From: Conexibacter arvalis
GTDB lineage: Bacteria > Actinomycetota > Thermoleophilia > Solirubrobacterales > Solirubrobacteraceae
NCBI RefSeq assembly: GCF_014199525.1
Contig: NZ_JACHNU010000001.1
Coordinates: 908,182-972,181 of the forward strand
Length of the DNA: 64,000 nucleotides
Reading direction: 5' to 3'
In this document: positions 44,921 through 64,000 of the stretch, piece by piece
Layout of the letters: each line of letters starts with the position of its first letter
Numbering within the stretch: position 1 is the stretch's first letter
The notes under the pieces: model-generated
Databases searched by the model: none
The model's input: the letters and a program-made list of their open reading frames with translations, nothing else
Told to the model about the DNA's origin: nothing
Program-made: the position numbers and the translations under genes

Positions 44921-46948
44921 GTGGCGTATCGCGTAGCGATCGACATCGGTGGCACGTTCACGGATCTCGTTCTGGAGGACGTCTCCGCGGGCCGGCTGAG
45001 CACGGCGAAGGTGCTCTCGACCCCGGGCCATCTGGTCGACGGTGTCGTCGCGGCCGTGCGCGCGAGCGAGGTCCCCGCCGCCGAGATCGAGCTGTTCGTC
45101 CACGGTACGACGGCCGGTCTGAACGCGCTCCTCGAGCGCCGCGGCGCCAAGGTCGCGCTCGTCACGACGCGCGGCTTCCGCGACGTCTATCCGATCGGCC
45201 GCGGCAACCGCCCGCAGATGTACGACCTCCACTACGTCAAGCCGGAGGCGCTCGTCGACCGCGCGATGATCTTCGAGGTCGACGAGCGGATCGCCGCCGA
45301 CGGCAGAGAGCTCGAGCCGGTCGACCTCGCCTCGGTCGACCGCACCGCGGAGGCGATCGCGGCCGGCGGCTTCGACGCCGTCGCCGTCTCGCTGCTGCAC
45401 GGCTACGCCGACGGCGCCCACGAGCAGCAGGTCGCCGACCGCCTCGCGGAGAAGCTCGGGCTGCCGGTCGTCACCAGCCACGTCGTCGCCCCCGAGTGGC
45501 GCGAGTACGAGCGCACCTCGACGACGGTGATGTCGGCGTACATCACGCCGATCATGCGCAGATACCTCGACGAGCTGACGAGAGCGCTCGCCGCCGAGGG
45601 CCTCCAGGTCCCCGTCTACATCACCGAGTCCAACGGCGGCATGATGAGCGCCGCCGTCGCCGACGACAAGGCGATCCTGACGCTCTTCTCCGGCCCCGTC
45701 GGCGGCGTCGTCGGAACGCGCGCCGCCGGCGCCGCGCTCGGCCTCGAGGACTTGATCACGATCGACATGGGCGGCACGTCGTTCGACGTCAGCCTCGTGC
45801 GCGGCGGCGAGGCCGGCGTGATGTCGGAGTTCGAGCTGCAGGGCCTGCCGGTGCTCGCCCCGGCCGTCGAGGTCCACACGATCGGCGCCGGCGGCGGCAG
45901 CCTCATCCGCGAGGTCGGCGGCGCGCTGCGCGTCGGCCCCGAGTCGGCCGGCGCCCGTCCCGGCCCGGCCTCCTACGGCAACGGCGGCGCCGAGCCGACG
46001 ATCACCGACGCCAACGTCGCGCTCGGGCGGCTCCCCTCCGGCCAGCGCCTCGCCGGCTCGATGGAGCTCGACCGCGACGCCGCGATCGCCGCGCTGGAGC
46101 AGGTCGGCGCGAGATTCGGCATCGGCGCGACCGAGCTGGCCGAGCAGGCGCTCGAGATCGCCCACTTCGCGATGGCCGAGGCGATCCGCGAGCTGACGAT
46201 CGAGCGCGGCCTCGACCCGCGCGACTTCGTGCTCTGCGCCTTCGGCGGCGCCGGCGGCCTGCACGCGACCGCGCTCGCCGAGGAGCTGGAGATCAGACGG
46301 GTGCTCGTGCCCGCGATGCCCGGTGCCTTCTCCGCGTGGGGAATGCTCCAGGGCGATGTCCGCCACGACGCCGTCCAGACCTTCTACCGCTCGCTCGAGC
46401 GCGCCCCGGCCGACCTCCCCGGCGCCGCCGCCGAGCTGGAGCAGCGCGTCGCGGGCCTGCTCGCCGCCGACGGCGTCGACGGCCGCCCGGTCCGCTTCGA
46501 GGTCGCGGGCGACCTGCGCTACCTCGGTCAGGAGTACACGCTGACGCTGCCGCTCGCCGAGCACGAGGTCGCCGACCTGGCGGCCCACTCCGACGCGCTC
46601 GTCGCGCGCTTCCACGCCGCGTACCACGAGCGCTACGGCCACGCGAGCGCCGACCAGCCGGTCGAGTTCGTCGCGATCCGGATCGCCGCGATCGCCGAGC
46701 TGGAGCGCTCCGCGAACGGCGACGGCGGCGGCGCCGCCCCCGCCGCCGCCGACGGCTCGCCGCTCGGCAGCTCGACCTACCTTCAGGACGGCGCCGAGCT
46801 GGAGGCGGCCCTGTGGCCGCGCGCCGCGATCGCCGGCCCGGTGCAGGGCCCGGCGATCGTGCTGGAGCAGACCTGCACCACGGTCGTCGGCCCCGGCTGG
46901 ACCGCACGACCCGTCGCCGACGGCCACCTGCTGCTGGAGAAGGACTGA
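44921..46948 (+). CDS. hyuA: Hydantoinase/oxoprolinase A subunit (N-methylhydantoinase A type)
   Basis: 675 residues from GTG 44921 with GGGAG upstream. ASKHA-type ATPase fold: RVAIDIGGTFTDLVL, VHGTTAGLNALLERRGAKVALVTT, TESNGGMM, TIDMGGTSFDVSL, HTIGAGGGSL, FGGAGGLHA. Together with HyuB it uses ATP to open five-membered cyclic amides or imides such as hydantoins, N-methylhydantoin or 5-oxoproline, or to carboxylate ketones (acetophenone/acetone carboxylase relatives). Exact substrate undetermined. First gene of a long plus-strand cluster. Confidence 0.9.
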   Translation: MAYRVAIDIGGTFTDLVLEDVSAGRLSTAKVLSTPGHLVDGVVAAVRASEVPAAEIELFVHGTTAGLNALLERRGAKVALVTTRGFRDVYPIGRGNRPQMYDLHYVKPEALVDRAMIFEVDERIAADGRELEPVDLASVDRTAEAIAAGGFDAVAVSLLHGYADGAHEQQVADRLAEKLGLPVVTSHVVAPEWREYERTSTTVMSAYITPIMRRYLDELTRALAAEGLQVPVYITESNGGMMSAAVADDKAILTLFSGPVGGVVGTRAAGAALGLEDLITIDMGGTSFDVSLVRGGEAGVMSEFELQGLPVLAPAVEVHTIGAGGGSLIREVGGALRVGPESAGARPGPASYGNGGAEPTITDANVALGRLPSGQRLAGSMELDRDAAIAALEQVGARFGIGATELAEQALEIAHFAMAEAIRELTIERGLDPRDFVLCAFGGAGGLHATALAEELEIRRVLVPAMPGAFSAWGMLQGDVRHDAVQTFYRSLERAPADLPGAAAELEQRVAGLLAADGVDGRPVRFEVAGDLRYLGQEYTLTLPLAEHEVADLAAHSDALVARFHAAYHERYGHASADQPVEFVAIRIAAIAELERSANGDGGGAAPAAADGSPLGSSTYLQDGAELEAALWPRAAIAGPVQGPAIVLEQTCTTVVGPGWTARPVADGHLLLEKD

Positions 46949-48579
46949 TGTCGACGCAAACGATCCCCACCCCCGCGACGGTCGAGGTCGTCCGTCACGC
47001 CTTCATGTCGGGCGCCGAGCAGATGCGCCGCAACCTCTGCCGCTCGGCCTACAGCCCGGTCATCTACGAGATGAAGGACTGCTCGGTCGGCCTCTACGAC
47101 GTCCGCGGCGACCTGCTCGGCCAGGCGCCCGGCCTGCCGTTCTTCCTCGGCAGCCTCGCCGGCACGATCAAGCTCGCGATCGAGCAGGTCGGCCTCGACG
47201 CCTTCTCCGACGGCGACGTCTGGGTCGTCAACGACTCGGCGATCTGCGGCAGCCATCTCAACGACGTGACGCTGTTCGCGCCGGTCTTCGTCGACGGCGA
47301 GCTGCGCGGCTTCACCGCCTCGAAGGCGCACTGGAACGACATCGGCGCCAAGGAGGCCGGCTACGTGTCGGACTCCGTCGACATCTTCCAGGAGGGCCTG
47401 CGGATCCCGCCGATGCGGATCATCCACGCCGGCGAGAGCGACCGGCGGCTGATCGACATGATCGCGCTCAACTCGCGCTATCCGACGGAGCTGGTCGGCG
47501 ACATGATGGCCCAGGTGACCGCCTGCCGCACCGGCGTCGAGCGCTTCCGCTCGATCGTCGCGCGCTACGGCTGGGAGCAGGTCGAGGCCGCGACCGAGCG
47601 CTTCTTCGCGCAGGCCGAGGCCGAGGACCGCGCTGCCGTCGCCTCGATCCCCGACGGCACCTACCGCGCCGAGGGCGCGCTCGACAACGACGGCATCAAC
47701 GCCGACCCGGTCCCGGTCGTCGTCACGGTGACGATCGACGGCGACCGCATGATCGTCGACCTCGAGGGCTCCTCGCCCGAGAACGAGGGCTCGGTCAACA
47801 GCGGCATCGTCCAGACCCACTCGGCGATCCAGCAGGCGTTCAAGTTCGTCGTCAACCCGGACGCGCCGGTCTGCGGCGGCAACTTCCGCAACCTCGAGAT
47901 CGTCGTGCCGAAGGGCAGCTGCTTCGACCCCTCGCCGACGGCCGCCTGCCTCCACTACGGCCCGCACCTGATGCTCGCGATGGACCTGCTCGTGCGCGCG
48001 CTCAGCGAGGCGATCCCGGAGCGCACCGCCGCCGGCCACGTCGGCGACTCCTGGAACATCACCTTCGTCAACGAGCGCGGCCACGCGCCGTTCCTCTGCG
48101 GCGAGTCGCTGATCGGCGGCTGGGGCGCCCACCCCGGCGGCGACGGCGAGAGCGCGCTGGTGCACTCGGCCGCCGGCGACTTCAAGAACTTCCCCGTCGA
48201 GATCATCGAGCAGCGGTACCCGCTGCGCCTGCGCGAGTTCTCGCTGCGCGAGGGCTCCGGCGGGGCCGGCGCCCATCGCGGCGGCCTCGGCACGGTGCGC
48301 GTCTACGAGACGACCGACGCCTGCCGTCTCAGCCTCTGGTTCGAGCGCCACGACACACCGTCGTGGGGCCTGGCCGGCGGCGGCGACGGCGCGCCGCCCG
48401 AAGTCTGGGTGACGCGTCCGGGCGGCGAGCGGGAGCTGGTGCTCAAGTGCAATGCGCTGGCCGTCGAGGCCGGCACGGTGATCGAGGTGCTCACCGGCGG
48501 AGGCGGCGGCTGGGGCGACCCGGCGCAGCGCTCCGCGCAGTCCGTGGCCGAAGACCGTCGACTCGGCCTGATCAGCTAG
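46948..48579 (+). CDS. hyuB: Hydantoinase/oxoprolinase B subunit (N-methylhydantoinase B type)
   Basis: 543 residues; start overlaps the hyuA stop (TGATG). Hydantoinase_B domain over the full length: LCRSAYSPVIYEMKDCSVGLYD, NDSAICGSHLNDVTLFAPVF, AHWNDIG, GGNFRNLEIVVPKG, GGGGWGDP at the C-terminus. Obligate partner of HyuA. Confidence 0.92.
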   Translation: MSTQTIPTPATVEVVRHAFMSGAEQMRRNLCRSAYSPVIYEMKDCSVGLYDVRGDLLGQAPGLPFFLGSLAGTIKLAIEQVGLDAFSDGDVWVVNDSAICGSHLNDVTLFAPVFVDGELRGFTASKAHWNDIGAKEAGYVSDSVDIFQEGLRIPPMRIIHAGESDRRLIDMIALNSRYPTELVGDMMAQVTACRTGVERFRSIVARYGWEQVEAATERFFAQAEAEDRAAVASIPDGTYRAEGALDNDGINADPVPVVVTVTIDGDRMIVDLEGSSPENEGSVNSGIVQTHSAIQQAFKFVVNPDAPVCGGNFRNLEIVVPKGSCFDPSPTAACLHYGPHLMLAMDLLVRALSEAIPERTAAGHVGDSWNITFVNERGHAPFLCGESLIGGWGAHPGGDGESALVHSAAGDFKNFPVEIIEQRYPLRLREFSLREGSGGAGAHRGGLGTVRVYETTDACRLSLWFERHDTPSWGLAGGGDGAPPEVWVTRPGGERELVLKCNALAVEAGTVIEVLTGGGGGWGDPAQRSAQSVAEDRRLGLIS

Positions 48580-48594: not shown

Positions 48595-50247
48595 GTGTTC
48601 AGCAGACCCACCCTTCCCGGCGCCGGGCGCCTGCGCGCAGTGTGCGCCGCGCTCGTCGCAGTGGCGCTCGCGGCGCTGCTCGCCGCCTGCGGCGGCAGCG
48701 ACAGCGACTCGAGCAGCGGCGGCGGCAGCGCCGGCGGCTCCTCGGGCGACACGTCGACGCTGACGATCGGCGTCGCCGGCGATCCCGAGACGCTCGATCC
48801 CGAGTTCGGCCAGGCGCAGCGCGCGAACGAGACGCTCAAGAACATCTACGCGCAGTGGACGCGCTACGAGACGGCCGACGCCGGCGACGGCGACCTCAGA
48901 GCCGACCTCTCCAAGCCGCCGGTCGGCGAGGCGCTCGAGTCCTACAGAATCAGCAGAGACGGCAGAACGGTCACGCTGACCGCCCGCGAGGGCTTCAGAC
49001 TGCCGTCGAGCGGCCAGCTGACCGCCGACGACATGCTCTACAAGACGAGCCGTCTGCTCGGCCTCAACGCGGCCTCGGTCTTCGATCTGAACATCCTTGG
49101 CGTCACGAGACCCGAGCAGATCAGAAAGGTCGACGACCGCACGATCGAGCTGTCGCTGCCCCAGCCGTCGCCGATCGTCGGCGCGATGCTGCGCGATCAG
49201 GACGCCGGTCTCGTCGACACCGAGCTGGTCAGAAGAAACGCCACGGGCGGCGACGAGTGGGCGAGAGCGTTCGTCGGCAGAACGGGCGCGCCGACCGGCG
49301 CCTACCTGATCGAGGACTACCAGCCGGGCAACCAGCTGGTCCTGAGAGCGAACCCGGACTACCCCGAGGCGCCGTTCTTCGAGCGGGTCGTCCTGAAGGT
49401 GATCCCGTCGGCCGACGAGCGCGCCCAGCTGCTGCGCAACGGCACGATCGACATCGCCGCCGACCTCACCTCCGACGGCATCACCCGTCTCGCCGACGCC
49501 GACGGCGTCCGCGTCGTCTCCGTGCCGGGCCTCCAGCAGACCCAGCTCGGCTTCGTCAGCGACAAGGCGCCGTTCGACGACGCGCGCGTCCGCCAGGCGA
49601 TCGCCGCCGCGATCCCGTACGACTCGCTCAGGGACAACGTCCTCGGCGGCGAGTCGAGCGCCCCGGGCGTCTGGCCGACCCAGTCGGTCTGGTACGACGA
49701 CTCGATCCCGAGCCCGTACGCGACCGACGTCGAGAAGGCGAGAAGCCTGCTCGCTGAGGCCGGCGTCGACAACCTCACTTTCGACGTCGAGATCAGCGAC
49801 GCCGACGCCGACGCCGAGGCGCTCGCGATCCCGGTCCAGACCGCGCTCGCCGACATCGGCGTGACGATGAACATCAGAAAGCTCAACGCCGCGCAGTTCC
49901 AGGAGAACCTGGGCAGAAGAAGCGCGCAGGCGTGGATCCGCTCCGGCATGGGGCCGTACGTCGACGACCCGTACTACATGGCCTTCCTCACGTGGATGAC
50001 CAGATCGGTCGTCAACTGGTACGGCTACTCCAACCCGGTCGTCGACAGAGCCGGCGCGGAGCTGGCGAGAACGCTCGACGAGGGCAAGCGCAGAGAGCTC
50101 GCCTCGACGATCCAGAGAGAGCTCGCCAACGACGTCCCGATGATCTCGCTCGGCGAGCCGAACTTCCGGCTGCCGGTCCGCGAGGACATCAGAGGCGTCC
50201 TCTGGGAGCCGGACGGCCTGCTCACCTACCGCCTGCTGAGACGGTAG
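48595..50247 (+). CDS. Peptide-type ABC transporter substrate-binding lipoprotein (family 5)
   Basis: 550 residues from GTG 48595 with AGGAGCAGAGG upstream. Lipobox LAAC (Cys32), Ser/Gly tether, then SBP_bac_5 fold: GDPETLDPEFGQAQRANETLKNIY, and a long two-lobed body. Delivers oligopeptides, nickel or other ligands to the DppBCDF-like permease encoded next. 24 of 46 arginine codons are AGA by my count, whereas adjacent hyuB has almost none. Context suggests the ligand feeds the hydantoinase/racemase pathway. Confidence 0.92.
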   Translation: MFSRPTLPGAGRLRAVCAALVAVALAALLAACGGSDSDSSSGGGSAGGSSGDTSTLTIGVAGDPETLDPEFGQAQRANETLKNIYAQWTRYETADAGDGDLRADLSKPPVGEALESYRISRDGRTVTLTAREGFRLPSSGQLTADDMLYKTSRLLGLNAASVFDLNILGVTRPEQIRKVDDRTIELSLPQPSPIVGAMLRDQDAGLVDTELVRRNATGGDEWARAFVGRTGAPTGAYLIEDYQPGNQLVLRANPDYPEAPFFERVVLKVIPSADERAQLLRNGTIDIAADLTSDGITRLADADGVRVVSVPGLQQTQLGFVSDKAPFDDARVRQAIAAAIPYDSLRDNVLGGESSAPGVWPTQSVWYDDSIPSPYATDVEKARSLLAEAGVDNLTFDVEISDADADAEALAIPVQTALADIGVTMNIRKLNAAQFQENLGRRSAQAWIRSGMGPYVDDPYYMAFLTWMTRSVVNWYGYSNPVVDRAGAELARTLDEGKRRELASTIQRELANDVPMISLGEPNFRLPVREDIRGVLWEPDGLLTYRLLRR

Positions 50248-50284: not shown

Positions 50285-51313
50285 ATGAGAAGCTCGTCCT
50301 TCTGGCTCGTCTACCTGGGGCGCCGCGTCGCGGCGGCGCTCCTGGCGCTGTTCGGCGTCGCGCTGCTCGTCTTCGTCGTCACGCGCCTGCTCGGCGATCC
50401 GGTCAACCTGATCCTGGGAGCGCGCGCGACGCCGGAGCAGATCGCGGCGTTGAGAAGAGAGCTGGGCTACGACAAGCCGATCGTCGAGCAGTTCCTCACC
50501 TACATCGGGAACCTGCTCCAGGGCGACCTCGGCGTCTCGCGCTACACGCAGTTGCCGGTCACCGAGGAGCTCGCCAACCGGCTCCCCGCGACGTTGGAGC
50601 TGGCACTGGCGGGCCTCTTCCTCGGCCTGCTGTGGACCGTCCCGCTCGGCGTGATCGCGGCGACCCGCCCCGGCGGGTGGGTCGACCGCGTCAGCCAGGC
50701 GATCGTCGAGTTCGGGGTCGCGATCCCGAGCTTCTTCTGCGGCCTGCTGCTGGTGCTGCTGTTCACCTACCTGCTCGGCATCACGCCGCCGCCGGTCGGA
50801 CGGCTCGACATCGGCACGGCCGCGCCGGCGAGAGTGACCGGCCTCTTGACGGTCGACTCGCTGCTGGCGGGCGACCTGAGAGCGTTCGGCAGCTCGCTGA
50901 AGTACCTCGCGCTCCCTGCGATCACGCTGGCGCTGACCTCCTGCCCGCCGATCCTGCAGCTGACGCGCAACACGATGATCGGAGCGCTGCGCTCCAACTA
51001 CGTGCGCGGCGCGCGCAGCTTCGGCCTGCCGGAGCGGACGGTGCGCTGGTACGCGCTGAAGAACTCGCTCGTCCCCGTCTTCACGATGACGGCGATGACC
51101 TTCGGCTTCCTGATCGGCGGCACCGTGCTCGTCGAGACGGTCTTCTCGTGGCCGGGCATCGGCCTCTACGCCGTCCAGAGCATGCAGCGCTTCGACTACG
51201 AGCCGGTGCTCGGCGTCGTGCTGCTGGCGTCGGCGATCTACATCCTCGTCTACCTGATCGCCGATCTCGTCTCGATGGCGATCGACCCGCGCGTGCGAGA
51301 GGGGGCGTCATGA
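50285..51313 (+). CDS. Peptide-type ABC transporter permease (DppB-like)
   Basis: 342 residues, six membrane helices. LLVFVVTRLLGDP at TM1, GDLGVSRYTQLPVTEELANRLPATLELA, and the EAA loop RNTMIGALRSNYVRGARSFGLPERTVRWYALKN. Confidence 0.93.
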   Translation: MRSSSFWLVYLGRRVAAALLALFGVALLVFVVTRLLGDPVNLILGARATPEQIAALRRELGYDKPIVEQFLTYIGNLLQGDLGVSRYTQLPVTEELANRLPATLELALAGLFLGLLWTVPLGVIAATRPGGWVDRVSQAIVEFGVAIPSFFCGLLLVLLFTYLLGITPPPVGRLDIGTAAPARVTGLLTVDSLLAGDLRAFGSSLKYLALPAITLALTSCPPILQLTRNTMIGALRSNYVRGARSFGLPERTVRWYALKNSLVPVFTMTAMTFGFLIGGTVLVETVFSWPGIGLYAVQSMQRFDYEPVLGVVLLASAIYILVYLIADLVSMAIDPRVREGAS

Positions 51314-52230
51314 GCGTCGGAAGGCTCGAGGGCGCCGGCCAGGGGCCGGAAATCGCCCTCCACACCGCCGACGACCTCGGCCCGGAGCCCCGTCCCCAGG
51401 GGCCGCGGCGCGGGCTGCGCGCCCGCGCCGGCCGCGCCGGCTTCTTCCTCACCGGCTGGTGGGCGCTGCTGCTGCTGTTCGGCCTGGTCGCGATCTTCGC
51501 GCCGCTGATCGCGCCGTTCGACCCGGTCCGCGCCGACCTGACAGCGAGACTGCTGCCGCCGTCGGGAACCCATCTGTTCGGCACCGACCAGAACGGCATG
51601 GACGTCTTCTCGCGCGTGCTGTGGGCGACGCGCACCGACTTCACGATCGCCTTCGTCGGCGTCGCGATCTCGCTCGCGGTCGGCGTCCCGCTCGGCGCCG
51701 CCAGCGGATATCTCGGCGGCTGGCTCGACGAGGGCCTCAACCGCTTCGCGGAGATCATCCAGTCGATCCCGCTGTTCCTCTTCGCGCTGATGGTCTTCGC
51801 CGCGATGGGCAACAACCGCACGGTCCTGATCGGCATCGTCGGCTTCGTCAACGCGCCGATCTTCTTCAAGCTCACTCGCGCGGTCGTGCTGCCGATGAAG
51901 TCGCTCGACTACATCGCGGCCGCGACCTGCGCGGGGCTGCGCGCGCCCGCGATCATCGTGCGGCACGTGCTGCCCAACGCGCTCGGGCCGGTCGCCTCCC
52001 AGCTGTCGATCTCCTGCGCCTACGCGCTGCAGATCGTCGCCGGGCTCAGCTTCCTCGGCCTCGGCGTCCCGGTCCCCGAGCCGGAGTGGGGGTCGATGAT
52101 CCAGCAGGGCGCGGGCCGCATCGTCGACGGGGACTGGTGGATCTCGGTCTTCCCCGGCTTCGCGGTGCTGCTCGCGGTGATGGCGTTCGGCGGCATCGGC
52201 CGCCAGCTTGCGAGGGCGTATGACCACTGA
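51310..52230 (+). CDS. Peptide-type ABC transporter permease (DppC-like)
   Basis: 306 residues; ATG overlaps the DppB-like stop. N-terminal 45 residues charged, then six helices; LFGTDQNGMDVFSRVLWATRTDF and an EAA loop around YIAAATCAGLRAPAIIVRHVLPNAL. Confidence 0.93.
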   Translation: MSVGRLEGAGQGPEIALHTADDLGPEPRPQGPRRGLRARAGRAGFFLTGWWALLLLFGLVAIFAPLIAPFDPVRADLTARLLPPSGTHLFGTDQNGMDVFSRVLWATRTDFTIAFVGVAISLAVGVPLGAASGYLGGWLDEGLNRFAEIIQSIPLFLFALMVFAAMGNNRTVLIGIVGFVNAPIFFKLTRAVVLPMKSLDYIAAATCAGLRAPAIIVRHVLPNALGPVASQLSISCAYALQIVAGLSFLGLGVPVPEPEWGSMIQQGAGRIVDGDWWISVFPGFAVLLAVMAFGGIGRQLARAYDH

Positions 52231-54250: not shown

Positions 54251-54979
54251 ATGCGGATCCGATACGTCAATCCGGTCGGGAGCGACGCGATCGACGCGTA
54301 CTTCGCGCGCCAGCTGGCCGGCGCCGGCGGAGCCGACGCCGAGATCGAGGTCGTCCACGCGCAGGCCGGCGCCGACTCCGACAGCCCCTTCCTGCCGCCG
54401 GCGACCGCCTCCCACGGGGCGATCCTCGAGGCGCTGGCGAAGGCGCAGGCCGACGGCTGCGACGCGGCCGTGATCGGCTGCAGCGGCGATCCGACGCTGC
54501 TGGAGGCGCGCCGCGCCTTCGAGATCCCCGTCACCGCTCCGCTCGACAGCGCGCTCCATCTCGCCGCGCAGCTCCATCAGCGGGTCGCGATCCTCGTCGC
54601 CGACGGCTTCGAGGCGGCGATCCTCTTCAAGGATCTCGCCCGCCTCTACGGCCTCGACCACCTCGTCGCCGAGGTCCACACGATCCCGATGGACTACCCG
54701 GAGACGCACGGCGGCGCCGACCACGAGGCCGAGACGATGGCCGTGATCGAGCGCCACCGCGAGGTGCTGAGCGGACGGGCGCTCGAGCTGGCGCGCGGCT
54801 CGGTGGAGCGCGGCGCCGGCGTCGTCTACGCCGGCTGCACCTTCTGGACCGGCGAGATGCTCGACCCGTTCCGCGCGGCGCTCGGCGTGCCGGTGCTCGA
54901 CCCCGGTCGCGGCGCCGTCGCGATGGCCGCGGCCGCCGTCCGCGCGAAGGCCGGCATCCCGGCGGGGGCGGCGGCATGA
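54251..54979 (+). CDS. Asp/Glu/hydantoin racemase family protein
   Basis: 242 residues, AAGGAG at good distance from ATG 54251. Two-fold Asp/Glu racemase fold with the catalytic cysteine pair Cys77 (VIGCSGDP) and Cys196 (YAGCTFW). Hydantoin racemases of this family interconvert 5-substituted hydantoin enantiomers before stereospecific ring opening, which fits hyuAB in the same cluster. Confidence 0.88.
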   Translation: MRIRYVNPVGSDAIDAYFARQLAGAGGADAEIEVVHAQAGADSDSPFLPPATASHGAILEALAKAQADGCDAAVIGCSGDPTLLEARRAFEIPVTAPLDSALHLAAQLHQRVAILVADGFEAAILFKDLARLYGLDHLVAEVHTIPMDYPETHGGADHEAETMAVIERHREVLSGRALELARGSVERGAGVVYAGCTFWTGEMLDPFRAALGVPVLDPGRGAVAMAAAAVRAKAGIPAGAAA

Positions 54980-56067: not shown

Positions 56068-57380
56068 GCGGGCGGGTCGTCAGCGGCCTCGTCGACGGCG
56101 CCGACGTCTACAGCTCCCGGCTCGCGGCCGCGGCCGGCTACGCCTTCCTCGGCGGGCCGGCCCGCGGGCCCGACGGCCGGCTCGCAGCAGAGGCGGCGGT
56201 CGCCCATCCCTACCGCCGCTCGCCGACCGCGCACGCGCGGGCGCAGGCGCAGGCGCTGCTCGACGGCGGCGCCGCGCTGCTGGCGCCGCTCGGCGCCGGC
56301 CTCGACGACCTCGTCCAGCTGGAGCAGTACGTCGCCACCGGCGCCCACGCCTACGGCTACCTGACGACGCTGCGCGGACCGCGCGGGATCGCGACCCGGC
56401 GGCCGGCGAGCGCGCTCGCCGCGAGCGGGCCGATGGCGCCGCCGGAGGCGGTCGTCAACGCGCTGCTGATCGCCGCGCTGCCGCAGGGCGGCCGCGCGAA
56501 GGAGATCGTCGTCCCCTTCAGGGGCGACGCCGCCGCGCACCTCCCCGACCCCACGATGCGCGAGGCGCCGTACGCCGAGGTCGTCGGCGCCGGTCCGTAC
56601 CTGTTCACGCTCGGCGACGTCGCCTTCGAGCTCGGCGCCGGCGTCCACCCCGACGTGCGCCAGCCCGACTGGACCTGGTTCGGCAGCGAGATCGCGGCCG
56701 AGGCCGAGCACAACCTCGCGCTCCTCTCCGAGCGCCTGGAGGCGGCCGGGAGCGACCTCGCCCACGTCGTCCACGCGACCGTGATGGTCGCCGACACCGC
56801 CGACCTGCGCGAGCTCGACGACGTCTGGGAGCGGGCCTTCCCGCAGGCGCCGCCGGCGCGCACCGTCGTGCCGGTGACCGGGCTCGCGTCGCCGCGCCGG
56901 GCCGGCGCGCGCGGCCATGGCGAGAACGCCGTCCGCTACATGACGATGTGCCGCGCGGTGCGCCGCGACGCCGGCCCCGCGACCGTCGTGCCCGACGGCT
57001 CCGGCGTGCTCGGCGCCGCCTCCGGCGCCGTCTCCGCCGCCGGCCTGCTGTGGGTCTCCGGGCAGTGCGCGGCCGACCCCGACGGCCTCCCGGCGGGCTC
57101 CGGCGCGACCGCGCAGGCGGCGGTCGCCTTCGAGCGCGTGCGCGCGCTCTGCGAGGCCGGCGGCACGTCGCTCGGCGAGCTGCTCGTGCTGCGCGCCTTC
57201 GCCGCCGACCGGGAGGCGATCGACGCCGTCCACGCGCTCGTGCGCGAGGCCTTCCCGGCCGACCCGCCGGTCGTGATCGCGCTGCCCGTCGCCGGGCCGC
57301 CGGCGATCGACGGGGTCCGTGTCACGCTCGACGCGATCGCGCACGTCCCCACCGCCGCCCCGACCGAGGTCCAGCCATGA
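56064..57380 (+). CDS. Fusion of three RidA/YjgF-like domains
   Basis: 438 residues from GTG 56064 (overlaps upstream stop). Three successive YjgF-type modules: about 1-142, 146-303 and 304-435. The second keeps the RidA catalytic arginine region (PPARTVVPV, Arg266); the third reads DPPVVIALPV at that place and lacks it, and the first is divergent (RRPASALA). RidA proteins hydrolyse reactive enamine/imine intermediates formed by PLP or flavin enzymes on amino acids. Standard members are single-domain trimers of about 130 residues, so this chain may fold as a covalent pseudo-trimer with one or few active sites. Confidence 0.75.
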   Translation: MSGRVVSGLVDGADVYSSRLAAAAGYAFLGGPARGPDGRLAAEAAVAHPYRRSPTAHARAQAQALLDGGAALLAPLGAGLDDLVQLEQYVATGAHAYGYLTTLRGPRGIATRRPASALAASGPMAPPEAVVNALLIAALPQGGRAKEIVVPFRGDAAAHLPDPTMREAPYAEVVGAGPYLFTLGDVAFELGAGVHPDVRQPDWTWFGSEIAAEAEHNLALLSERLEAAGSDLAHVVHATVMVADTADLRELDDVWERAFPQAPPARTVVPVTGLASPRRAGARGHGENAVRYMTMCRAVRRDAGPATVVPDGSGVLGAASGAVSAAGLLWVSGQCAADPDGLPAGSGATAQAAVAFERVRALCEAGGTSLGELLVLRAFAADREAIDAVHALVREAFPADPPVVIALPVAGPPAIDGVRVTLDAIAHVPTAAPTEVQP

Positions 57381-58228
57381 CCGCCCCAGCTCCCCTCCCG
57401 CTCCTGCACGGCCGCGTCGCGCTCGTCACCGGCGGCGCCAACGGCCTCGGCGCGACGATCGCGCGGACGCTCGCCGCGGCCGGCGCCCGCGGCGTCGCGC
57501 TCGACCGCGACGTCGCCGGCGCGACGCCGCCCGACGGCTGGGTCGCCCACGCCGCCGACGTCACCGACGAGCAGGCGCTGCGCGCCGCCGTCGCCGCCTG
57601 CGTCGAGCGCTTCGGCCGCCTCGACGTCGTCGTCGCCAACGCCGGCGTCGTGCCGCCGTGGCGCGAGACCGCCGCGATCGAAGCGGACGAGTGGGACCGC
57701 GTCAGCGCCGTCAACGTCCGCGGCGTCGCGACCACGATCGCCGCCGCCGTCCCCGCCCTCAAGGCCGCCGCCGCGGCCCCGCCCGCCGCCGCCGCGCCGG
57801 GGCCGCCCGCCGCGCAGGGGCTCGCCGCCGCGGCCCCGCCGGCCGCCCGCGCGACCGCCTCCGTGATCGCGCTCGCGTCGATCAACGCGCGCAAGGCCCA
57901 TCCGCGGCAGGCGCTCTACAGCGCCACCAAGCACGCGGTCGTCGGGATCGTCCGCGCGACCGCGCTCGACCTCGGCCGCGACGGCATCCGCGTCAACGCC
58001 GTCGCGCCCGGCGCGATCGCGACCGACGCGCTGCTCGACCGCATGGCGAGACGCGCCGCGGCCGGCGGCCTCGCCGCCGACGAGGCGCTCGCCGCGGCGG
58101 CGGGCGAGACCGCGCTCGGCCGCATCGCGACCGCCGAGGAGGTCGCCGACGCCGTCCTCTTCCTCGCCAGCGACCTGGCGTCCGGCATCACCGGCCAGGT
58201 GCTCGCCGTCGACGCCGGCGTCCCCTGA
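57377..58228 (+). CDS. Short-chain dehydrogenase with Ala/Pro-rich insertion
   Basis: 283 residues; ATG overlaps the RidA-fusion stop. GGANGLG cofactor motif, VVANAGVVPP, serine SINARKAHP, catalytic YSATK, C-terminal AVDAGVP. Between helix alpha-F and the catalytic Ser is a low-complexity Ala/Pro/Gly stretch (about residues 133-159) absent from usual homologues. Probably oxidises or reduces an alcohol/keto intermediate of the local pathway. Confidence 0.88.
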   Translation: MTAPAPLPLLHGRVALVTGGANGLGATIARTLAAAGARGVALDRDVAGATPPDGWVAHAADVTDEQALRAAVAACVERFGRLDVVVANAGVVPPWRETAAIEADEWDRVSAVNVRGVATTIAAAVPALKAAAAAPPAAAAPGPPAAQGLAAAAPPAARATASVIALASINARKAHPRQALYSATKHAVVGIVRATALDLGRDGIRVNAVAPGAIATDALLDRMARRAAAGGLAADEALAAAAGETALGRIATAEEVADAVLFLASDLASGITGQVLAVDAGVP

Positions 58229-58288: not shown

Positions 58289-59053
58289 ATGCACGATCTC
58301 AGCGGCAGGACGATCCTGCTGACCGGCGCCTCGAAGGGCATCGGCGCCGCGACCGCGGAGGCGCTCGGCGCTGCCGGCGCCCACGTCGTCGCCCACTACG
58401 GCGGCGACCGCGCCGGCGCGGAGGCGGCGACCGCGGCGATCCCGGCCGACCGCAAGCTGCTCGTCCAGGCCGACCTCGCCGACCTCGGCGCCGTCCGCGG
58501 CCTGTGGCGCGAGGCGGTCGCCTGGCGCGGCCGCGTCGACGTGCTCGTCAACAACGCGGCCGTGATGCTCGACTCCCCGCTCGCGGCCGACGACGACCAG
58601 TGGGACGCGGCGTGGGCGCGCTCGCTCGACGTCAACGTGAAGGGCCCGGCGTCGCTGCTGCGCGACGCGACCCGCCACCACCTCGAGCGCGGCGGCGGCG
58701 TGATCGTGACGATCTCCAGCTGGGCCGCGCAGCGCGGCGCCGGCAACCCCGACCTGACCGCCTACTCGGCGTCGAAGGCGGCGATCAAGGCCGCGACGCA
58801 GACGATCGCGCGCGCCCACGCCGTCGACGGCGTGCTCGCATACGTCGTCGCGCCGGGCATCGTGCGGACGCAGATGTCGGAGGTCTCGGCGCAGCGGACC
58901 GGCGGCGAGGAGGCGCTGACCGCCAGCCTCGCGATGAAGGAGTGGGTCCCGCCGTCGGACCTCGCCGACCTCGTCTGCTACCTCGCGACCGGCCGCTGCC
59001 GGCATCTGACGGGTGCGACGCTCGACGTCAACGGCGCCTCCTACGTCCGCTGA
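58289..59053 (+). CDS. Short-chain dehydrogenase/reductase
   Basis: 254 residues with GAAGGAG upstream. Complete classical SDR: TGASKGIG, NNAAVML, Ser (ISSWAAQ), catalytic YSASK, C-terminal LTGATLDVNGASYVR. Last gene of the plus-strand series before the convergent DapA-like gene. Confidence 0.9.
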   Translation: MHDLSGRTILLTGASKGIGAATAEALGAAGAHVVAHYGGDRAGAEAATAAIPADRKLLVQADLADLGAVRGLWREAVAWRGRVDVLVNNAAVMLDSPLAADDDQWDAAWARSLDVNVKGPASLLRDATRHHLERGGGVIVTISSWAAQRGAGNPDLTAYSASKAAIKAATQTIARAHAVDGVLAYVVAPGIVRTQMSEVSAQRTGGEEALTASLAMKEWVPPSDLADLVCYLATGRCRHLTGATLDVNGASYVR

Positions 59054-59156: not shown

Positions 59157-60119
59157 TCAGGCGGCGGCCGACGCGGGGGAGACGGGGGCGGCGGCCTCGA
59201 ACTTCGCCGTCAGCTCCTCCATCTCGACGATCACGGCGCGCAGCTCGGCGACCTTCGCCTCGCCCTCGGCGCCGAGCGATCTGAACGACTTCAGCGGCGG
59301 GCGGACGTCGCCGACCGGGTAGCCGGCCGCGGCCGCGAGCGCCTTCGAGTAGCACTGGTAGCCGTAGAGCGGATGGCCGTCCTGGAGGATGAAGTCGATC
59401 TTGTCGAGCAGCACCTCGATCTGCTTGGCCTCCTCGACGCGGCCGGCGTCGATCAGGTCGCAGATCACGCGCGAGGGGCGCGGCGTGTAGTTGCCGAACG
59501 GGTTGACGTAGCCGACGGCGCCGAGCAGGTAGGACTCGACGATCCGCTCGCCGGCGAAGACGTTCATGACGCCGTCGGTCGCCTCGATCACGTCGTAGAC
59601 GCGCGCGACGTCGGTGCTCGCCTCCTTGATGTAGCGGATCTGCTCGTGGTCCCGCGTCAGCTGCGCGACGAATCTCGCCGACATGTCGACGTTGGTCGTG
59701 TGCGGGTTGTTGTAGAGCATGATCGGCACGTCGACCGCGTCGCAGATCGCGGCGTAGTAGCCGGCCATCTCGTCCTCGGTCGGGGTGATGTAGTACGGCG
59801 GCGAGATCATCAGGCCGTCGGCGCCGAGGGCGACCGCCTCGCGGCTGTAGCGGACCGCGTTGGGCGTGTGCATGTTGGCGGTGCCGACCAGCACCGGCAC
59901 GCGGCCGGCGACGTGTCTCACGGCCGTCTCGACGAGCGCCGTGCGCTCCTCGTCGCTGACCGACAGGAACTCGCCCGACGTGCCGAGGACGACGATGCCG
60001 GGGACGCCCTCAGCGAGGTTCCAGTCGATCAGGCGCTTCATCGCGTCCAGATCGACGTTGGCGCCGTCCTCGGTGAACGGCGTGATCGTGACGGTGTAGC
60101 TCCCACGAAACTCCGACAT
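59157..60119 (-). CDS. DapA-family aldolase/lyase (DHDPS/NAL superfamily)
   Basis: 320 residues with AGGAGA upstream of ATG 60119. Class I aldolase barrel: GTSGEFLSVSDEER, Tyr136 (MLYNNP) and Schiff-base Lys165 (IRYIKEAS). The superfamily includes dihydrodipicolinate synthase, N-acetylneuraminate lyase and several 2-keto acid lyases and hydroxyproline or keto-glutarate enzymes. Position next to an amino-acid oxidase and outside any lysine pathway makes a catabolic 2-keto acid lyase more likely than lysine synthesis. Confidence 0.88.
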   Translation of the reverse strand: MSEFRGSYTVTITPFTEDGANVDLDAMKRLIDWNLAEGVPGIVVLGTSGEFLSVSDEERTALVETAVRHVAGRVPVLVGTANMHTPNAVRYSREAVALGADGLMISPPYYITPTEDEMAGYYAAICDAVDVPIMLYNNPHTTNVDMSARFVAQLTRDHEQIRYIKEASTDVARVYDVIEATDGVMNVFAGERIVESYLLGAVGYVNPFGNYTPRPSRVICDLIDAGRVEEAKQIEVLLDKIDFILQDGHPLYGYQCYSKALAAAAGYPVGDVRPPLKSFRSLGAEGEAKVAELRAVIVEMEELTAKFEAAAPVSPASAAA

Positions 60120-60177: not shown

Positions 60178-61338
60178 GTGGTCAGCGCACCTCCACAGAC
60201 AACTGAGGTCCTCGTCGTCGGCGGCGGGATCACCGGCGCTGCGACCGCGTACCGGCTCGCGCAGGCCGGCGTCGAGACCGTCCTGATCGACCGCTTCGAC
60301 CTCGGCACGCAGGCCTCCGGCGCCAACGCCGGCTCGATGCACGGCCAGATCCAGTTCTCGCCCTTCCGCGACAACGGCGAGGTCTGGGCGCGCAGATGGG
60401 CGCCGTCGCTGGAGCTGCTGGACGCCTCCGTCGAGATCTGGAAGGGGCTGAACGACGAGCTCGGCGTCGACGTCGAGCTGAGACTGGGCGGCGGGCTGCT
60501 GGTCGCCTCCGACGAGAGGCAGCTGCGGATGATCGAGCGCAAGGTGGCGCTCGAGAACGCCCACGGCGTCGCCTCGCAGCTGCTCTCGCGCGACGACCTG
60601 CGGCGGGTCGCCCCGTACGTCGCCGACGAGATGGTCGGCGGCGAGCTCTGCCCGATCGAGGGCAAGGCCAACCCGCTGCTGGCGACGCCGGCCTTCGCGG
60701 CCGCCGCGCTGCGCGCCGGCGCCCGGATCGAGCGCCACTGCGAGGTGCAGGCGATCGAGCGCACGCGCGACGGCTTCGAGCTGAGCACGACGCGTGGCCG
60801 CTTCCGCGCGCCGAGACTGGTCCTCTGCGCCGGCGCCGACACCGCGCCGCTCGGCCGCATGCTCGGCGTCGAGTTGCCGATCGAGGGCCATCCGATGCAG
60901 GTCAACGTGACCGAGGTCGTGACGCCGCTCGTCCCCCACCTCGTCTACTTCGCGGGCGACAGACTGACGCTCAAGCAGGCGGGGATCGGCTCGCTGCTGA
61001 TCGGCGGCGGCTGGCCGGCGACCGTCCACCCCCGCACCGGCCGTCCGGCCGTCGACCTCGACGGCGTCCGCCGCAACCTCGCCGTCGCGCGACGGGTGGT
61101 GCCGGCGGTCGGCCGCGCGCGGCTGCTGCGGACGTGGGTCGGCGTCAACAACGGCGTGCCCGACGAGATGCCGATCATCGCCGCGCTCGACGACGTCGCC
61201 CCGGGGCTGGTCGTCGGGACCTTCCCGTACCTTGGCTTCTCCGCCGGCCCGGTGATGGGCGAGATCCTCGCCGCGCTCGCGCGCGGCGTCGAGGTCCCGT
61301 TCGACCTCGCCCCGTTCCACCCGTCGCGCTTCGGCTGA
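60178..61338 (+). CDS. FAD-dependent D-amino-acid/sarcosine-oxidase-like enzyme (DAO family)
   Basis: 386 residues. N-terminal FAD motif VVGGGITGAATAYRL near 13-27, GTQASGANAGSMHG (flavin contact after the third strand), a substrate domain and GTFPYLGFSAGPVMGEILA at the C-terminus. Family members oxidise sarcosine, glycine, D-amino acids, opines or D-proline. In a cluster with hydantoinase and RidA the product imine or iminium would be a RidA substrate. The true start is GTG 60178; upstream in-frame codons overlap the divergent promoter. Confidence 0.85.
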   Translation: MVSAPPQTTEVLVVGGGITGAATAYRLAQAGVETVLIDRFDLGTQASGANAGSMHGQIQFSPFRDNGEVWARRWAPSLELLDASVEIWKGLNDELGVDVELRLGGGLLVASDERQLRMIERKVALENAHGVASQLLSRDDLRRVAPYVADEMVGGELCPIEGKANPLLATPAFAAAALRAGARIERHCEVQAIERTRDGFELSTTRGRFRAPRLVLCAGADTAPLGRMLGVELPIEGHPMQVNVTEVVTPLVPHLVYFAGDRLTLKQAGIGSLLIGGGWPATVHPRTGRPAVDLDGVRRNLAVARRVVPAVGRARLLRTWVGVNNGVPDEMPIIAALDDVAPGLVVGTFPYLGFSAGPVMGEILAALARGVEVPFDLAPFHPSRFG

Positions 61339-61686
61339 CGGCGCCACCGCGCCGCGTTCGCACCGCGTCCGGCAGGTGCGCATGGCGCACGGAAGGGTCT
61401 CTCCGGCGACCGCCCGGACGCGCAGATCTCGTCGCACCGTGTTTTTGATCGGCAAGGTGTGCGCATTTCGCGTCATTTGTGCGACAGGCAGATGGCGTGG
61501 GAGCGCGCCAGGCCCCTGCTATCCAGGAAGGAGCGCACTCGGTCGTGCGCATTGCGCCCTCTCGCGCGATATGCGAACATTCGCCTGGCTGACACCGCTT
61601 CGCCGTCCGTCATGGCGATCGCAATCCCCCCACGAACGTCTCGCCGCACCCCACAGCGGCGGGGCTGAACGGAAGCAGGAGAGACA
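61339..61686 (+). promoter_or_regulatory. 348-base control region with five TGTGCG/GTGCGC elements
   Basis: No gene seen. Holds GTGCGC-ATG-GCGCAC (61376-61390), TGTGCGCAT (61458-61466), TTTGTGCGACA (61476-61486), GCGCAC-TCGGTC-GTGCGC (61533-61550) and the full promoter-like element 61544-61580 shared with hyuA (31 of 37 identical). A short T run at 61442-61446 follows the oxidase gene and may mark its 3' end. Precedes the amino-acid ABC transporter. Confidence 0.7.
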
Positions 61687-62613
61687 GTGGATCACCACGA
61701 GAGTGCTCCAAGAGCAGAGGCAACGCAGGCCACCCGCCGCCGGATGCTGCTCGCTGGCGCCGGCGTGCTCGCGGCCGGCGCCGTCACCGGCTGCGGCCTG
61801 ACCAAGAGCGAGGACAGCTCCGCCAGCTCCGGCGCCGCCGCCGCCGGCGAGAGCGCGCTCGCACGCATCAAGAAGGACAAGAAGGTCCGCTTCGGCGTCG
61901 ACCTCTCGTTCGCGCCGCTGCAGTACCGCGACCCGAGATCGAAGGAGCCGACCGGCTACTCGATCGAGGTCTCCAAGCTGCTCGCGGCCGCGCTCGGCGC
62001 CGAGGCCGAGTGGGTCGAGGTGCCGTTCCAGGAGCTGATCTCGGCGCAGAAGGCCGGTCGCTTCGACATGGTCGGCATCCCGGTCGTCAACACCGCCGAG
62101 CGCGCGCTCGAGGTCGCCTTCGCCGCCGCTCCCGCCTTCCTCGAGGGCACCTACCTGTTCCAGCGCAGAGGGCTCGGCCTCTCCAGAATCGAGCAGCTCA
62201 ACGACGGCAGCAAGACGATCGCGCTGCTCGCCGGCTCGGCCCAGGTCAACACCGCCAAGCTGCTGTTCCCGAAGGCGAAGCGCAAGGAGCTGCCCGACGA
62301 CGTCGCCGCGACCGCCGACGTCTCGACCGGCCGCTCGGACGCGCTGTTCGTCGGCGACTACGCGATCGGCGACGCCCGCCGCAAGGGCCTCGAGCTGATC
62401 CAGCCGAGACCGGTCGCGACCGCCTGGAACACGTACTTCCTGCCGCAGGGCGACATCATCCTGCAGCAGTTCGTCACGACCTTCCTGCAGCAGAAGGCCA
62501 GCGACCTGACGCTCGCCAACCTGTGGCAGCAGTTCGTCGCCTCGGACATCGAGAGATACGGCGTCCAGTCGGCGCCCGTGAAGGACCCCTACCTGGCTGC
62601 CGCCTACGCCTGA
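61687..62613 (+). CDS. Amino-acid ABC transporter substrate-binding lipoprotein (family 3), Tat signal
   Basis: 308 residues from GTG 61687 with AGGAGAGA upstream. Twin-arginine motif TRRRMLLAG followed by lipobox VTGC (Cys36), so folded export and lipid anchoring are likely. SBP_bac_3 fold: [48 protein letters not shown]. Binds a polar amino acid or related amine. Six of 19 arginines use AGA. First gene of a three-gene importer. Confidence 0.9.
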
Positions 62614-63398
62614 TGAGCGCTTCGACCTCGTCCCTGCTGGAGCTCCGGCAGGTGACCAAGCAGTTCGGTGAGACGACCGTCCTCCATCCGACGGACCTCC
62701 AGGTGGAGAGGGGCGAGGTCGTCTGCGTCATCGGGCCGAGCGGCTCCGGCAAGTCGACGCTGCTGCGCTGCGTCAACTTCATCGCCCCGCCGACCACCGG
62801 CACGATCGTCTTCGACGGCGAGGAGTACCGCCCGCCGAAGGACCATCGCTGGATCCCGGCGCTCGGCATACCGGAGGAGCAGCGCCTCACGAGACTCCGC
62901 ACGCAGGTCGGCATGGTCTTCCAGCAGTTCAACGTCTTCCCGCACCTGACCGTGCGGGAGAACGTGGCGCTCGGCCTGCGCAAGACCTGCGGGCTCGGCA
63001 AGAAGGCGGCCGACGCGCGCGCCGTCGAGGAGCTGGGGAAGGTCGGCATGGCCGAGAAGGCCGCCGCCTACCCCGAGCAGCTCTCCGGCGGTCAGAAGCA
63101 GCGCGTCGCGATCGCCCGCGCGCTGGCGCTGGAGCCGAAGCTGATGCTGTTCGACGAGGCGACCTCGGCGCTCGACCCGGAGCTGGTCGGCGGCGTGCTG
63201 CAAATCATGCGCGACCTCGCGGCCGGCGGCATGACGATGATGGTCGTCACCCACGAGATGCGCTTCGCGATGGACGTCGCCGACCGCGTCATCTTCATGG
63301 ACAGAGGCGGGATCGTCGAGCAGGGGACGCCCGAGCAGTTCAAGTCGCCGCAGCACGAGCGCACGCGGGCCTTCCTGAAGTCGATCAACCACGGGTGA
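62613..63398 (+). CDS. Amino-acid ABC transporter ATPase (GlnQ-like)
   Basis: 261 residues; start overlaps the binding-protein stop (TGATGA). Walker [24 protein letters not shown] (polar amino acid type), signature [15 protein letters not shown], Walker [18 protein letters not shown]. Confidence 0.94.
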
Positions 63399-63405
63399 GC
63401 GCGCG

Positions 63406-64000
63406 ATGGTGTTCGCCTTCGACACGACCGTCATCTCGGACCATTCGAGCGAGCTGCTCGACGGGCTCCTGCTGACGGTCGAGGTCGCCGCGCTCGGCTT
63501 CGCGATCGCCGCGCTGCTGGGCCTGCCGCTCGCGCTCGCCGGGCGGTCGCAGTCGCCGCTGCTGCGCGTGCCGGCGACCCTGTGGGTCGGGCTGGCGCGC
63601 GGCGTGCCGCTGCTGATCGTGATCTTCTGGCTCTACTACGCCGCGGCGCAGGAGGGCCTCTTCAGCCTCACCGCCTTCCTCGCCGGCGCGCTGTCGCTCG
63701 GCCTGACCGGCTCGGGCTACATGTCCGAGATCTACCGCACCGCCTTCTCGGCGGTGCCGTCCGGGCAGCGTGAGGGCGCGGCCGCGATCGGCCTGTCGCG
63801 CTGGCAGACCTTCCGGCTGGTGATCTTCCCGCAGGCGCTGCGGACCGCGATCCCGCCCGGCATGAACGTCTTCGTGATGCTGCTGAAGGGCGCGACGCTG
63901 CTGTCGGTGATCGGCCTCGCCGACATGTTCTACACCGCCAAGCTGGTCGCGGTGAACGAGTTCAAGCCGTTCGAGCTGTACACGGCCGCGGCCGTGCTCG
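63406..64000 (+). CDS. Amino-acid ABC transporter permease, 3' end outside window
   Basis: At least 198 residues, open to the window edge. GLLLTVEVAALGFAIAALLGLPLALA (TM1), LARGVPLLIVIFWLYY, and the EAA loop GQREGAAAIGLSRWQTFRLVIFPQALRTAIPP are diagnostic of His/Glu/Gln/Arg-type permeases. Confidence 0.92.
   Translation, partial: MVFAFDTTVISDHSSELLDGLLLTVEVAALGFAIAALLGLPLALAGRSQSPLLRVPATLWVGLARGVPLLIVIFWLYYAAAQEGLFSLTAFLAGALSLGLTGSGYMSEIYRTAFSAVPSGQREGAAAIGLSRWQTFRLVIFPQALRTAIPPGMNVFVMLLKGATLLSVIGLADMFYTAKLVAVNEFKPFELYTAAAVL

What the first reader, a model, noticed from the sequence alone, without database searches (positions are those of the whole stretch)
44921..64000. Hydantoinase-racemase-RidA-oxidase island with two dedicated importers
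Seen: hyuA-hyuB, a full peptide-type ABC importer, Asp/Glu/hydantoin racemase, M24 hydrolase, triple RidA, two SDRs, then a convergent DapA-type lyase, a DAO-family oxidase and an amino-acid ABC importer. Known: HyuAB open cyclic amides or imides, hydantoin racemases supply the right enantiomer, DAO enzymes give imines, RidA hydrolyses them. Inferred: one route for uptake and degradation of a cyclic amide, N-methylated amine (such as N-methylhydantoin to sarcosine) or modified dipeptide. I do not recognise this combination as a described pathway.
Basis: partly seen in the sequence, partly recalled or inferred. Interest (0 to 1): 0.75.

Follow-up and report, generated by a model that had tools for sequence, protein, structure and literature searches.

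The report
Co-regulated cyclic-amide and amine breakdown island
A soil actinobacterium (Conexibacter relative) carries about 20 co-regulated genes that look like one uncharacterised route for importing a cyclic amide, opening its ring and burning the released amino compound, and parts of this route recur, with the same DNA control site, in distant bacteria.

Summary
All named genes are present; only "triple RidA" is overstated (two RidA domains detected) and the "oxidase" is better read as a dehydrogenase subunit whose partner lies just outside the window. The island runs on to about 77.6 kb. A 32-bp inverted repeat, T/GCGCATTGCG-N13-TATGCGAAC, sits upstream of hyuA, of the amino-acid importer and of aminotransferase|SSADH, and nowhere else in the 5.2-Mb genome at up to 3 mismatches. 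A relative (G017, contig C12) carries HyuAB, M24, both importers, DAO, DapA and two SDRs as one operon. Close HyuB relatives (at least 64%) were found only in genomes that also have the core. The core (DAO/alpha dehydrogenase, DapA, SDR, ene-reductase, GcvPA/PB, SSADH, IclR) is conserved across phyla; the HyuAB block is an added front end, absent from Conexibacter CPCC 205762. The substrate is unknown. N-methylhydantoin-to-sarcosine and 4-hydroxyproline readings fit poorly. Most likely: a lactam, hydantoin or cyclic dipeptide is imported, epimerised, opened with ATP and hydrolysed, and the amine is oxidised. No described pathway with this combination was found. New variant of a known kind.

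The parts
42989..44170 (-). Old-yellow-enzyme type (Oxidored_FMN) ene-reductase; core gene of the conserved island
   Evidence: PF00724 1.2e-66; relative found in 56 of 80 core loci
44825..44856 (+). Operator-like inverted repeat GCGCATTGCG-N13-TATGCGAAC upstream of hyuA
   Evidence: Exact match; only 3 distinct places in the genome at up to 3 mismatches, all in the island
44921..46948 (+). HyuA, ATP-binding subunit of an ATP-dependent lactamase/hydantoinase; nearest named family caprolactamase alpha (below its cut-off)
46948..48579 (+). HyuB, second subunit
   Evidence: PF02538 1.2e-166; 81% identical relative in G017, 64-67% in Acidimicrobiia
48595..50247 (+). Family-5 (dipeptide/opine/Ni type) solute-binding protein
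50285..51313 (+). DppB-type permease
   Evidence: reading frame and conserved position; 77% relative in G017
51310..52230 (+). DppC-type permease
52220..53215 (+). DppD-type ATPase
53212..54216 (+). DppF-type ATPase
54251..54979 (+). Asp/Glu/hydantoin racemase family protein, both active-site Cys present
   Evidence: PF01177 2e-22; best solved relatives are hydantoin racemases; sequence
54976..56067 (+). M24 (pita-bread) hydrolase with D/D/H/D/E at the metal-ligand positions
   Evidence: PF00557 1.3e-40; sequence; ligand assignment from general knowledge of the family
56064..57380 (+). Protein with two detectable RidA domains (about 167-275 and 314-420) and an unassigned N-terminal 150 residues
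   Evidence: full-length form seen only here among 396 phylum genomes
57377..58228 (+). SDR 1, overlaps the RidA stop codon by 4 bp; conserved core gene
58289..59053 (+). SDR 2; conserved core gene (63 of 80 loci)
59157..60119 (-). DapA-superfamily lyase/deaminase of its own clade; Arg of the DHDPS motif YNVPGRT absent (YNNPHTT)
60178..61338 (+). DAO-family beta subunit of a heteromeric FAD/FMN/[2Fe-2S] amino-acid dehydrogenase (GGGITG and RTWVG motifs)
61547..61578 (+). Second copy of the operator, upstream of the amino-acid importer
61687..62613 (+). Family-3 (polar amino-acid type) solute-binding protein
   Evidence: PF00497 5.5e-18
62613..63398 (+). Amino-acid ABC ATPase
63406..64000 (+). 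Amino-acid ABC permease 1 (continues to 64077; permease 2, alpha subunit, IclR1, IclR2, HCDH, GcvPB, GcvPA, NAD-kinase-like, aminotransferase, third operator 76058-76089 and SSADH follow up to 77644, outside the window)

Best explanation
The island is one co-regulated catabolic route made of a conserved back end and an added front end. Front end (44.9-57.4 kb): a peptide-type importer brings in a cyclic amide (lactam, 5-substituted hydantoin or cyclic dipeptide; the class is inferred, the compound unknown); the racemase epimerises its acidic alpha-carbon; HyuAB opens the ring with ATP; M24 hydrolyses the open product to release an amino compound; RidA domains clear reactive imines. Back end (57.4-77.6 kb): SDRs and an ene-reductase adjust the carbon skeleton; the DAO beta subunit and the [2Fe-2S]/FAD alpha subunit oxidise the (probably secondary) amine to an imine or keto acid without making H2O2; the DapA-family enzyme cleaves or deaminates that product; HCDH, the omega-aminotransferase and SSADH take the fragments to central metabolism, and GcvPA/PB dispose of glycine. 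The amino-acid importer takes up the already open form. An IclR regulator, probably IclR1, controls the units through the shared inverted repeat. Shown computationally: gene content, co-conservation, shared operator sites, clade membership. Inferred: every reaction, their order, the regulator that binds, and the substrate class.
For: Operator: exact 32-bp sites before hyuA, sbp3 and amt3|SSADH, no other place in 5.2 Mb at up to 3 mismatches; 2 in 64 kb against 0.03 expected. Sites at 0-2 mismatches occur at island promoters in Conexibacter CPCC 205762, G004, G017, G030, G445 and G447 (G017 also has one elsewhere). In 80 DapA loci 43 sites at up to 4 mismatches, 38 of them outside the island genes that were mapped, against about 0.3 per 10 shuffled loci, including an exact one at amt3|SSADH in Pseudomonas. 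Operon evidence: G017 contig C12 has SDR1-SDR2-ATPase-perm-SBP3-FAD-DAO-DapA-Fer2-HyuA-HyuB-SBP5-DppBCDF-M24 on one strand behind one operator. Co-occurrence: HyuB of at least 64% identity only in G000, G017 and three Acidimicrobiia; same contig as the DapA core in four of the five, about 13 kb apart in two of these. sdr1 and sdr2, core genes, follow the RidA gene in the hyu run. Dehydrogenase hallmarks: Cx4Cx2Cx12C, BFD-type Cys, GxGxxG, RxW (PMC4575208). The DapA clade is sister to proteins encoded beside a HydA-type cyclic amidohydrolase. HyuAB, omega-aminotransferase and SSADH parallel the caprolactam route (PMC6061476).
Against: HyuAB is near the core in only a few lineages: within 10 kb in 2 of the 80 DapA loci (one a distant pair), and it is absent at this site from the nearest relative, so the core has its own substrate that need not come from a cyclic amide. 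No sequence evidence names the substrate. The motif could be a promoter element or bind another regulator; no binding was tested. No operator of this type was found in the Acidimicrobiia islands (only 3-mismatch matches elsewhere), so regulation there differs. Gene families alone do not prove reaction order.
Confidence: 0.6

Rival explanations
1. Two separate routes lie side by side: a HyuAB/Dpp/racemase/M24 module for one compound, and the conserved DAO-DapA amino-acid route for another; sharing of the operator reflects a common nitrogen or carbon signal.
For: Conexibacter CPCC 205762 has the back end gene for gene without the HyuAB block; most of 80 core loci lack HyuAB.
Against: Exact shared operators limited to this island; single-operon version in G017 C12; HyuB clade always in genomes with the core; sdr1-sdr2 follow RidA in the same run.
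Confidence: 0.2
2. Opine-type or lactam-opine route: HyuAB opens a lactam such as a pyro-opine, the DAO/alpha enzyme splits the secondary amine into an amino acid and a keto acid, DapA cleaves the keto acid, aminotransferase and SSADH finish a GABA-like part. This is a narrower form of the best explanation.
For: Closest enzyme family includes flavin opine dehydrogenases (PMC4575208, RxW motif found); family-5 binding proteins include agrocinopine binders; SSADH over its subfamily cut-off; luciferase-like monooxygenase in the variants.
Against: No NAD(P)-opine synthase or arginine genes recognised nearby; SDRs, ene-reductase and HCDH unexplained.
Confidence: 0.15
3. 4-hydroxyproline route extended to hydroxyproline-containing cyclic dipeptides: HyuAB opens the ring, M24 acts as prolidase, DAO/alpha is D-hydroxyproline dehydrogenase, DapA the deaminase, SSADH the ketoglutarate-semialdehyde dehydrogenase.
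For: Same enzyme order as the described pathway (PMC6608401); M24 includes prolidases.
Against: No PF05544 epimerase anywhere in G000 or G017; DapA outside the clade of the deaminase-like proteins from Hyp-type clusters; G030 keeps a separate locus with proline racemases, DapA, SSADH and OCD.
Confidence: 0.08
4. N-methylhydantoin or creatinine to sarcosine.
For: HyuAB includes N-methylhydantoinases (general knowledge); DAO is nearest to SoxB-like models; GcvPA/PB would use glycine.
Against: DAO far below the SoxB cut-off, alpha shorter than the SoxA model and matching only its middle, no carbamoylsarcosine amidase recognised, DapA and SSADH unexplained.
Confidence: 0.05

Closest known systems
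Caprolactam degradation cluster of Pseudomonas jessenii (CapAB, omega-aminotransferase, SSADH-like; PMC6061476)
   Same: HyuAB-type ATP-dependent lactamase, class III omega-aminotransferase and SSADH-type dehydrogenase in one cluster; nearest named family for HyuA/HyuB (NF050156/NF050157)
   Different: HyuA 466 and HyuB 253 bits against cut-offs of 1000; island adds racemase, M24, DAO/alpha, DapA, SDRs, GcvPA/PB and two ABC importers
Bacterial trans-4-hydroxyproline catabolism (LhpABCEF / SCO6289-6293; PMC6608401)
   Same: Heteromeric D-HypDH-type dehydrogenase, DapA-family enzyme and semialdehyde dehydrogenase
   Different: No PF05544 epimerase in the genome; DapA in another clade; extra SDR, OYE, HCDH, GcvPA/PB
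Flavin-containing opine dehydrogenase OdhABC (PMC4575208)
   Same: Alpha/beta/gamma dehydrogenase layout with FAD, FMN and [2Fe-2S] motifs
   Different: Here gamma is fused to alpha and the genes are apart; DapA partner; substrate untested
HydA-DUF3830-DapA-fused dehydrogenase operons of Azospirillum, Agrobacterium, Aureimonas
   Same: Cyclic amidohydrolase plus DapA plus alpha/beta dehydrogenase plus amino-acid importer
   Different: Metal-type HydA instead of ATP-dependent HyuAB; no SDR, OYE or GcvPA/PB seen in the operon; no described function found

Membership tests
Caprolactamase (CapAB) | Scores over curated cut-offs of NF050156/NF050157 (1000 bits) | tested here: not met
   466.3 and 252.8 bits
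Hydantoinase/oxoprolinase A+B superfamily | HyuA N and catalytic domains plus HyuB domain over Pfam cut-offs | tested here: met
   PF05378, PF01968, PF19278, PF02538
trans-4-hydroxyproline catabolic cluster | Proline racemase family hydroxyproline 2-epimerase (PF05544) | tested here: not met
   No match in the whole genome G000
trans-4-hydroxyproline catabolic cluster | DapA in the Pyr4H2C deaminase clade | tested here: not met
   Separate clade with 100/100 support; the Hyp-cluster proteins fall outside it, though on long branches
Heteromeric FAD/FMN/[2Fe-2S] amino-acid dehydrogenase (D-HypDH/OpnDH/L-ProDH group) | Beta GxGxxG and RxW, alpha GxGxxG, Fer2 Cx4Cx2CxnC and BFD-type Cys | tested here: met
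   motif types as described in PMC4575208
Heteromeric FAD/FMN/[2Fe-2S] amino-acid dehydrogenase (D-HypDH/OpnDH/L-ProDH group) | Dye-linked dehydrogenase activity of the assembled complex | not testable with these tools
   needs protein
Heterotetrameric sarcosine oxidase | SoxB/SoxA models over cut-off, alpha near 1000 residues | tested here: not met
   133.7 of 529.45 and 146.7 of 1164 bits; alpha 580 aa
Dihydrodipicolinate synthase | TIGR00674 cut-off and substrate Arg in YNVPGRT | tested here: not met
   169.3 of 206.15 bits; motif YNNPHTT
Ectoine hydrolase (DoeA/EutD) | NF038259/TIGR02993 cut-offs | tested here: not met
   79.7 of 575 and 68.6 of 613 bits
RidA | PF01042 domain; three copies as claimed | tested here: inconclusive
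   two stretches found, first 150 residues no hit
IclR-controlled regulon | Shared inverted-repeat operator confined to pathway promoters | tested here: met
IclR-controlled regulon | Binding of the repeat by the island's IclR protein | not testable with these tools
   needs binding assay

The most novel reading that the evidence does not exclude
A widespread, undescribed catabolic pathway with its own IclR regulon, conserved with the same operator from Actinobacteria to Pseudomonas and Burkholderiaceae, degrades a common natural amino compound; lineages extend it to cyclic precursors by adding different ring-opening front ends (HyuAB; perhaps HydA in related DapA/dehydrogenase operons).
Probability: 0.5. 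Interest if true: 0.72.

Novelty: new variant of a known kind. Interest (0 to 1): 0.6.

Why it matters
HyuAB, M24, DapA and DAO paralogs are abundant and usually left without a substrate. A regulon that ties them together, conserved across phyla with a recognisable operator, gives a concrete handle: one inducer screen would assign function to many paralogs at once, and culturable hosts (Conexibacter, Pseudomonas, Caballeronia, Roseobacteraceae) exist. It would also show how a catabolic core gains a cyclic-amide front end.

Tried and rejected
Full-text searches for the gene combination, homarine, mycosporine-like amino acids, DUF3830, DUF885 and cyclic dipeptides gave no described pathway; the library lacks most subscription papers. 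Single-sequence AlphaFold of the RidA protein was useless (mean pLDDT 34.6). The Bacillus thuringiensis sox locus with soxG (dihydrodipicolinate synthase) was considered; it includes a proline racemase, unlike here. S. meliloti pSymB was held without annotation, so hypD there was taken by position and similarity only. Hydroxyproline identity was my leading idea after and was rejected. G005 and G444 give identical coordinates for every site and are probably the same genome; they are not counted as independent.

Full report
Observation. Gene starts were set by codon-position GC and ribosome-binding sites. From hyuA to sdr2 the genes run on one strand, most overlapping by 1-11 bp. Two corrections: the RidA protein has two detectable RidA domains, not three, and the DAO is a beta subunit whose [2Fe-2S]/FAD alpha partner lies at 65854-67596, outside the window.

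The island is larger than reported. Beyond 64000 follow permease 2, an MTES_1575/AbiEi gene, the alpha subunit, IclR1, then IclR2-HCDH-GcvPB-GcvPA-NAD-kinase-like-aminotransferase on the - strand and SSADH on the + strand up to 77644. GcvPA, GcvPB, HCDH (PRK06129) and the SSADH subfamily model pass their curated cut-offs. The PF02347 search finds GcvP-type sequence at one other place, C1:322198, so the island GcvPA is a second, more divergent copy.

Conservation of the core. A DapA alignment fetched 80 loci from 84,980 species genomes. Within 10 kb: DAO 71, alpha 64, SDR2 63, OYE 56, HCDH 39, IclR1 36, SDR1 36, GcvPB 34 and GcvPA 32 of 80, in Alphaproteobacteria, Gammaproteobacteria, Burkholderiaceae, Acidimicrobiia and others. 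Conexibacter sp. CPCC 205762 has the back end gene for gene at 59-89% identity, with OYE next to SDR1, and lacks the hyuA-RidA block at that site. So the block is a gained or lost front end.

Conservation of the front end with the core. G017 carries M24-racemase-DppFDCB-SBP5-HyuB-HyuA next to IclR1-alpha-LLM-DAO-DapA on contig C11 (HyuB 81%), and IclR2-HCDH-GcvPB-GcvPA-NADK-aminotransferase|SSADH on C421. Three Acidimicrobiia have HyuA-HyuB-HyuB' (64-67%); in two the same contig also holds SBP5-Dpp, racemase, HCDH, DapA, alpha and GcvPB/PA, about 13 kb between HyuB and DapA, and in the third HyuB and DapA are on different contigs. HyuB at E<=1e-165 was found in only 5 of 396 phylum genomes, and at least 64% identity only in genomes with the core. 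The HyuB tree groups the window, G017-C11 and the Acidimicrobiia (82/100). An independent, more divergent version in G017 (C12) puts two SDRs, the amino-acid importer, FAD subunit, DAO, DapA, Fer2, HyuAB, Dpp importer, M24 and a luciferase-like monooxygenase in one operon. G030 has HyuAB and M24 near SSADH, Fer2, DapA, DAO, HCDH, GcvPB and GcvPA.

Regulation. Comparing intergenic regions showed a common inverted repeat. The pattern KCGCATTGCG-N13-TATGCGAAC with up to 3 mismatches occurs at three distinct places in the whole genome, all exact and all in this island: before hyuA (44825), before sbp3 (61547) and between aminotransferase and SSADH (76058) (window expectation 0.03). Sites at 0-2 mismatches are found in the islands of other Solirubrobacteraceae and related genomes, including the G017 C12 operon and G004. 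In G017 one exact site lies elsewhere (contig C28, beside an HSP70 gene and a nitroreductase), so the confinement is not absolute in that genome; 3-mismatch matches are at noise level judging by the reversed-pattern controls. In the 80 core loci 43 sites at up to 4 mismatches were found, 38 outside the mapped island genes, against about 0.3 per 10 shuffled loci; Caballeronia and Paraburkholderia carry a one-mismatch copy and Pseudomonas sp. RIT-PI-AD an exact copy next to SSADH or at amt3|SSADH. Those proteobacterial clusters have IclR1 but no IclR2 within the stretch read, which points to IclR1 as the cognate regulator (inference).

Enzymology from sequence. DAO has GGGITG and RTWVG; alpha has Cx4Cx2Cx12C, GGGPAG and BFD-type cysteines, the hallmarks described for D-hydroxyproline, opine and L-proline dehydrogenases (PMC4575208). 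Such complexes act as dehydrogenases, so H2O2 is not expected. DapA lacks the DHDPS arginine and forms its own clade (100/100), sister, with 3eb2 placed uncertainly, to Azospirillum and Agrobacterium proteins encoded beside HydA and DUF3830, and away from DapA proteins of hydroxyproline-type clusters (long branches make the exact position of the latter unsure). HyuAB is nearest to caprolactamase but far below its cut-off. The racemase resembles solved hydantoin racemases; a distant fungal family member, OpaE, acts on nonribosomal peptide derivatives (abstract seen).

Mechanism and verdict. The best-supported reading is one regulon for uptake and degradation of a cyclic amide through an amine that the back end oxidises. 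The gene and operator evidence is computed; the substrate and all reactions are inferred. N-methylhydantoin to sarcosine and 4-hydroxyproline fail tested features. No described pathway matching the combination was found in the open library searched.

Noticed in passing
window 20924-24264 (-): Cobalamin riboswitch (24081-24264, 81.7 bits) ahead of a Peripla_BP_2 binding protein, a methyltransferase and a FecCD permease: a likely vitamin B12 uptake operon.
   Followed up: partly
L012, L014/L113, L128 (type B clusters): A second DapA/DAO module with separate alpha and Fer2 genes; luciferase-like monooxygenase and an enolase-superfamily racemase in some. It shares HCDH-GcvPB-GcvPA and, where read, the aminotransferase|SSADH and operator with the main core: two upstream modules into one downstream route.
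   Followed up: partly
L020, L021, L123, L125: Plasmid-borne operons in Azospirillum, Agrobacterium and Aureimonas: DapA, fused alpha-beta dehydrogenase, amino-acid importer, HydA, DUF3830; Variovorax has DapA, the fused dehydrogenase, ATPase and HydA. No described function found.
   Followed up: partly
L116:5763-7394; L089:12264-13901: DUF885 proteins next to HyuAB in Acidimicrobiia and near the core in several other loci; a candidate hydrolase for this pathway.
   Followed up: no
L062:3133-4542: An aldo/keto reductase fused to a RidA-like C-terminus near the core in Pseudotabrizicola, judged by eye from the sequence.
   Followed up: no
window 64880-65806 (-), outside the window: An MTES_1575/AbiEi-type gene inserted between the importer and the alpha subunit; absent at this place in Conexibacter CPCC 205762.
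   Followed up: no
G017 contig C28, 2825 (L127): An exact copy of the operator between an HSP70 gene and a nitroreductase-family gene, away from the known island contigs.
   Followed up: partly
L001:10597-11742 and relatives: An NAD-kinase/AcoX-like protein that often lies beside GcvPA/GcvPB in these clusters; its role is unknown.
   Followed up: no
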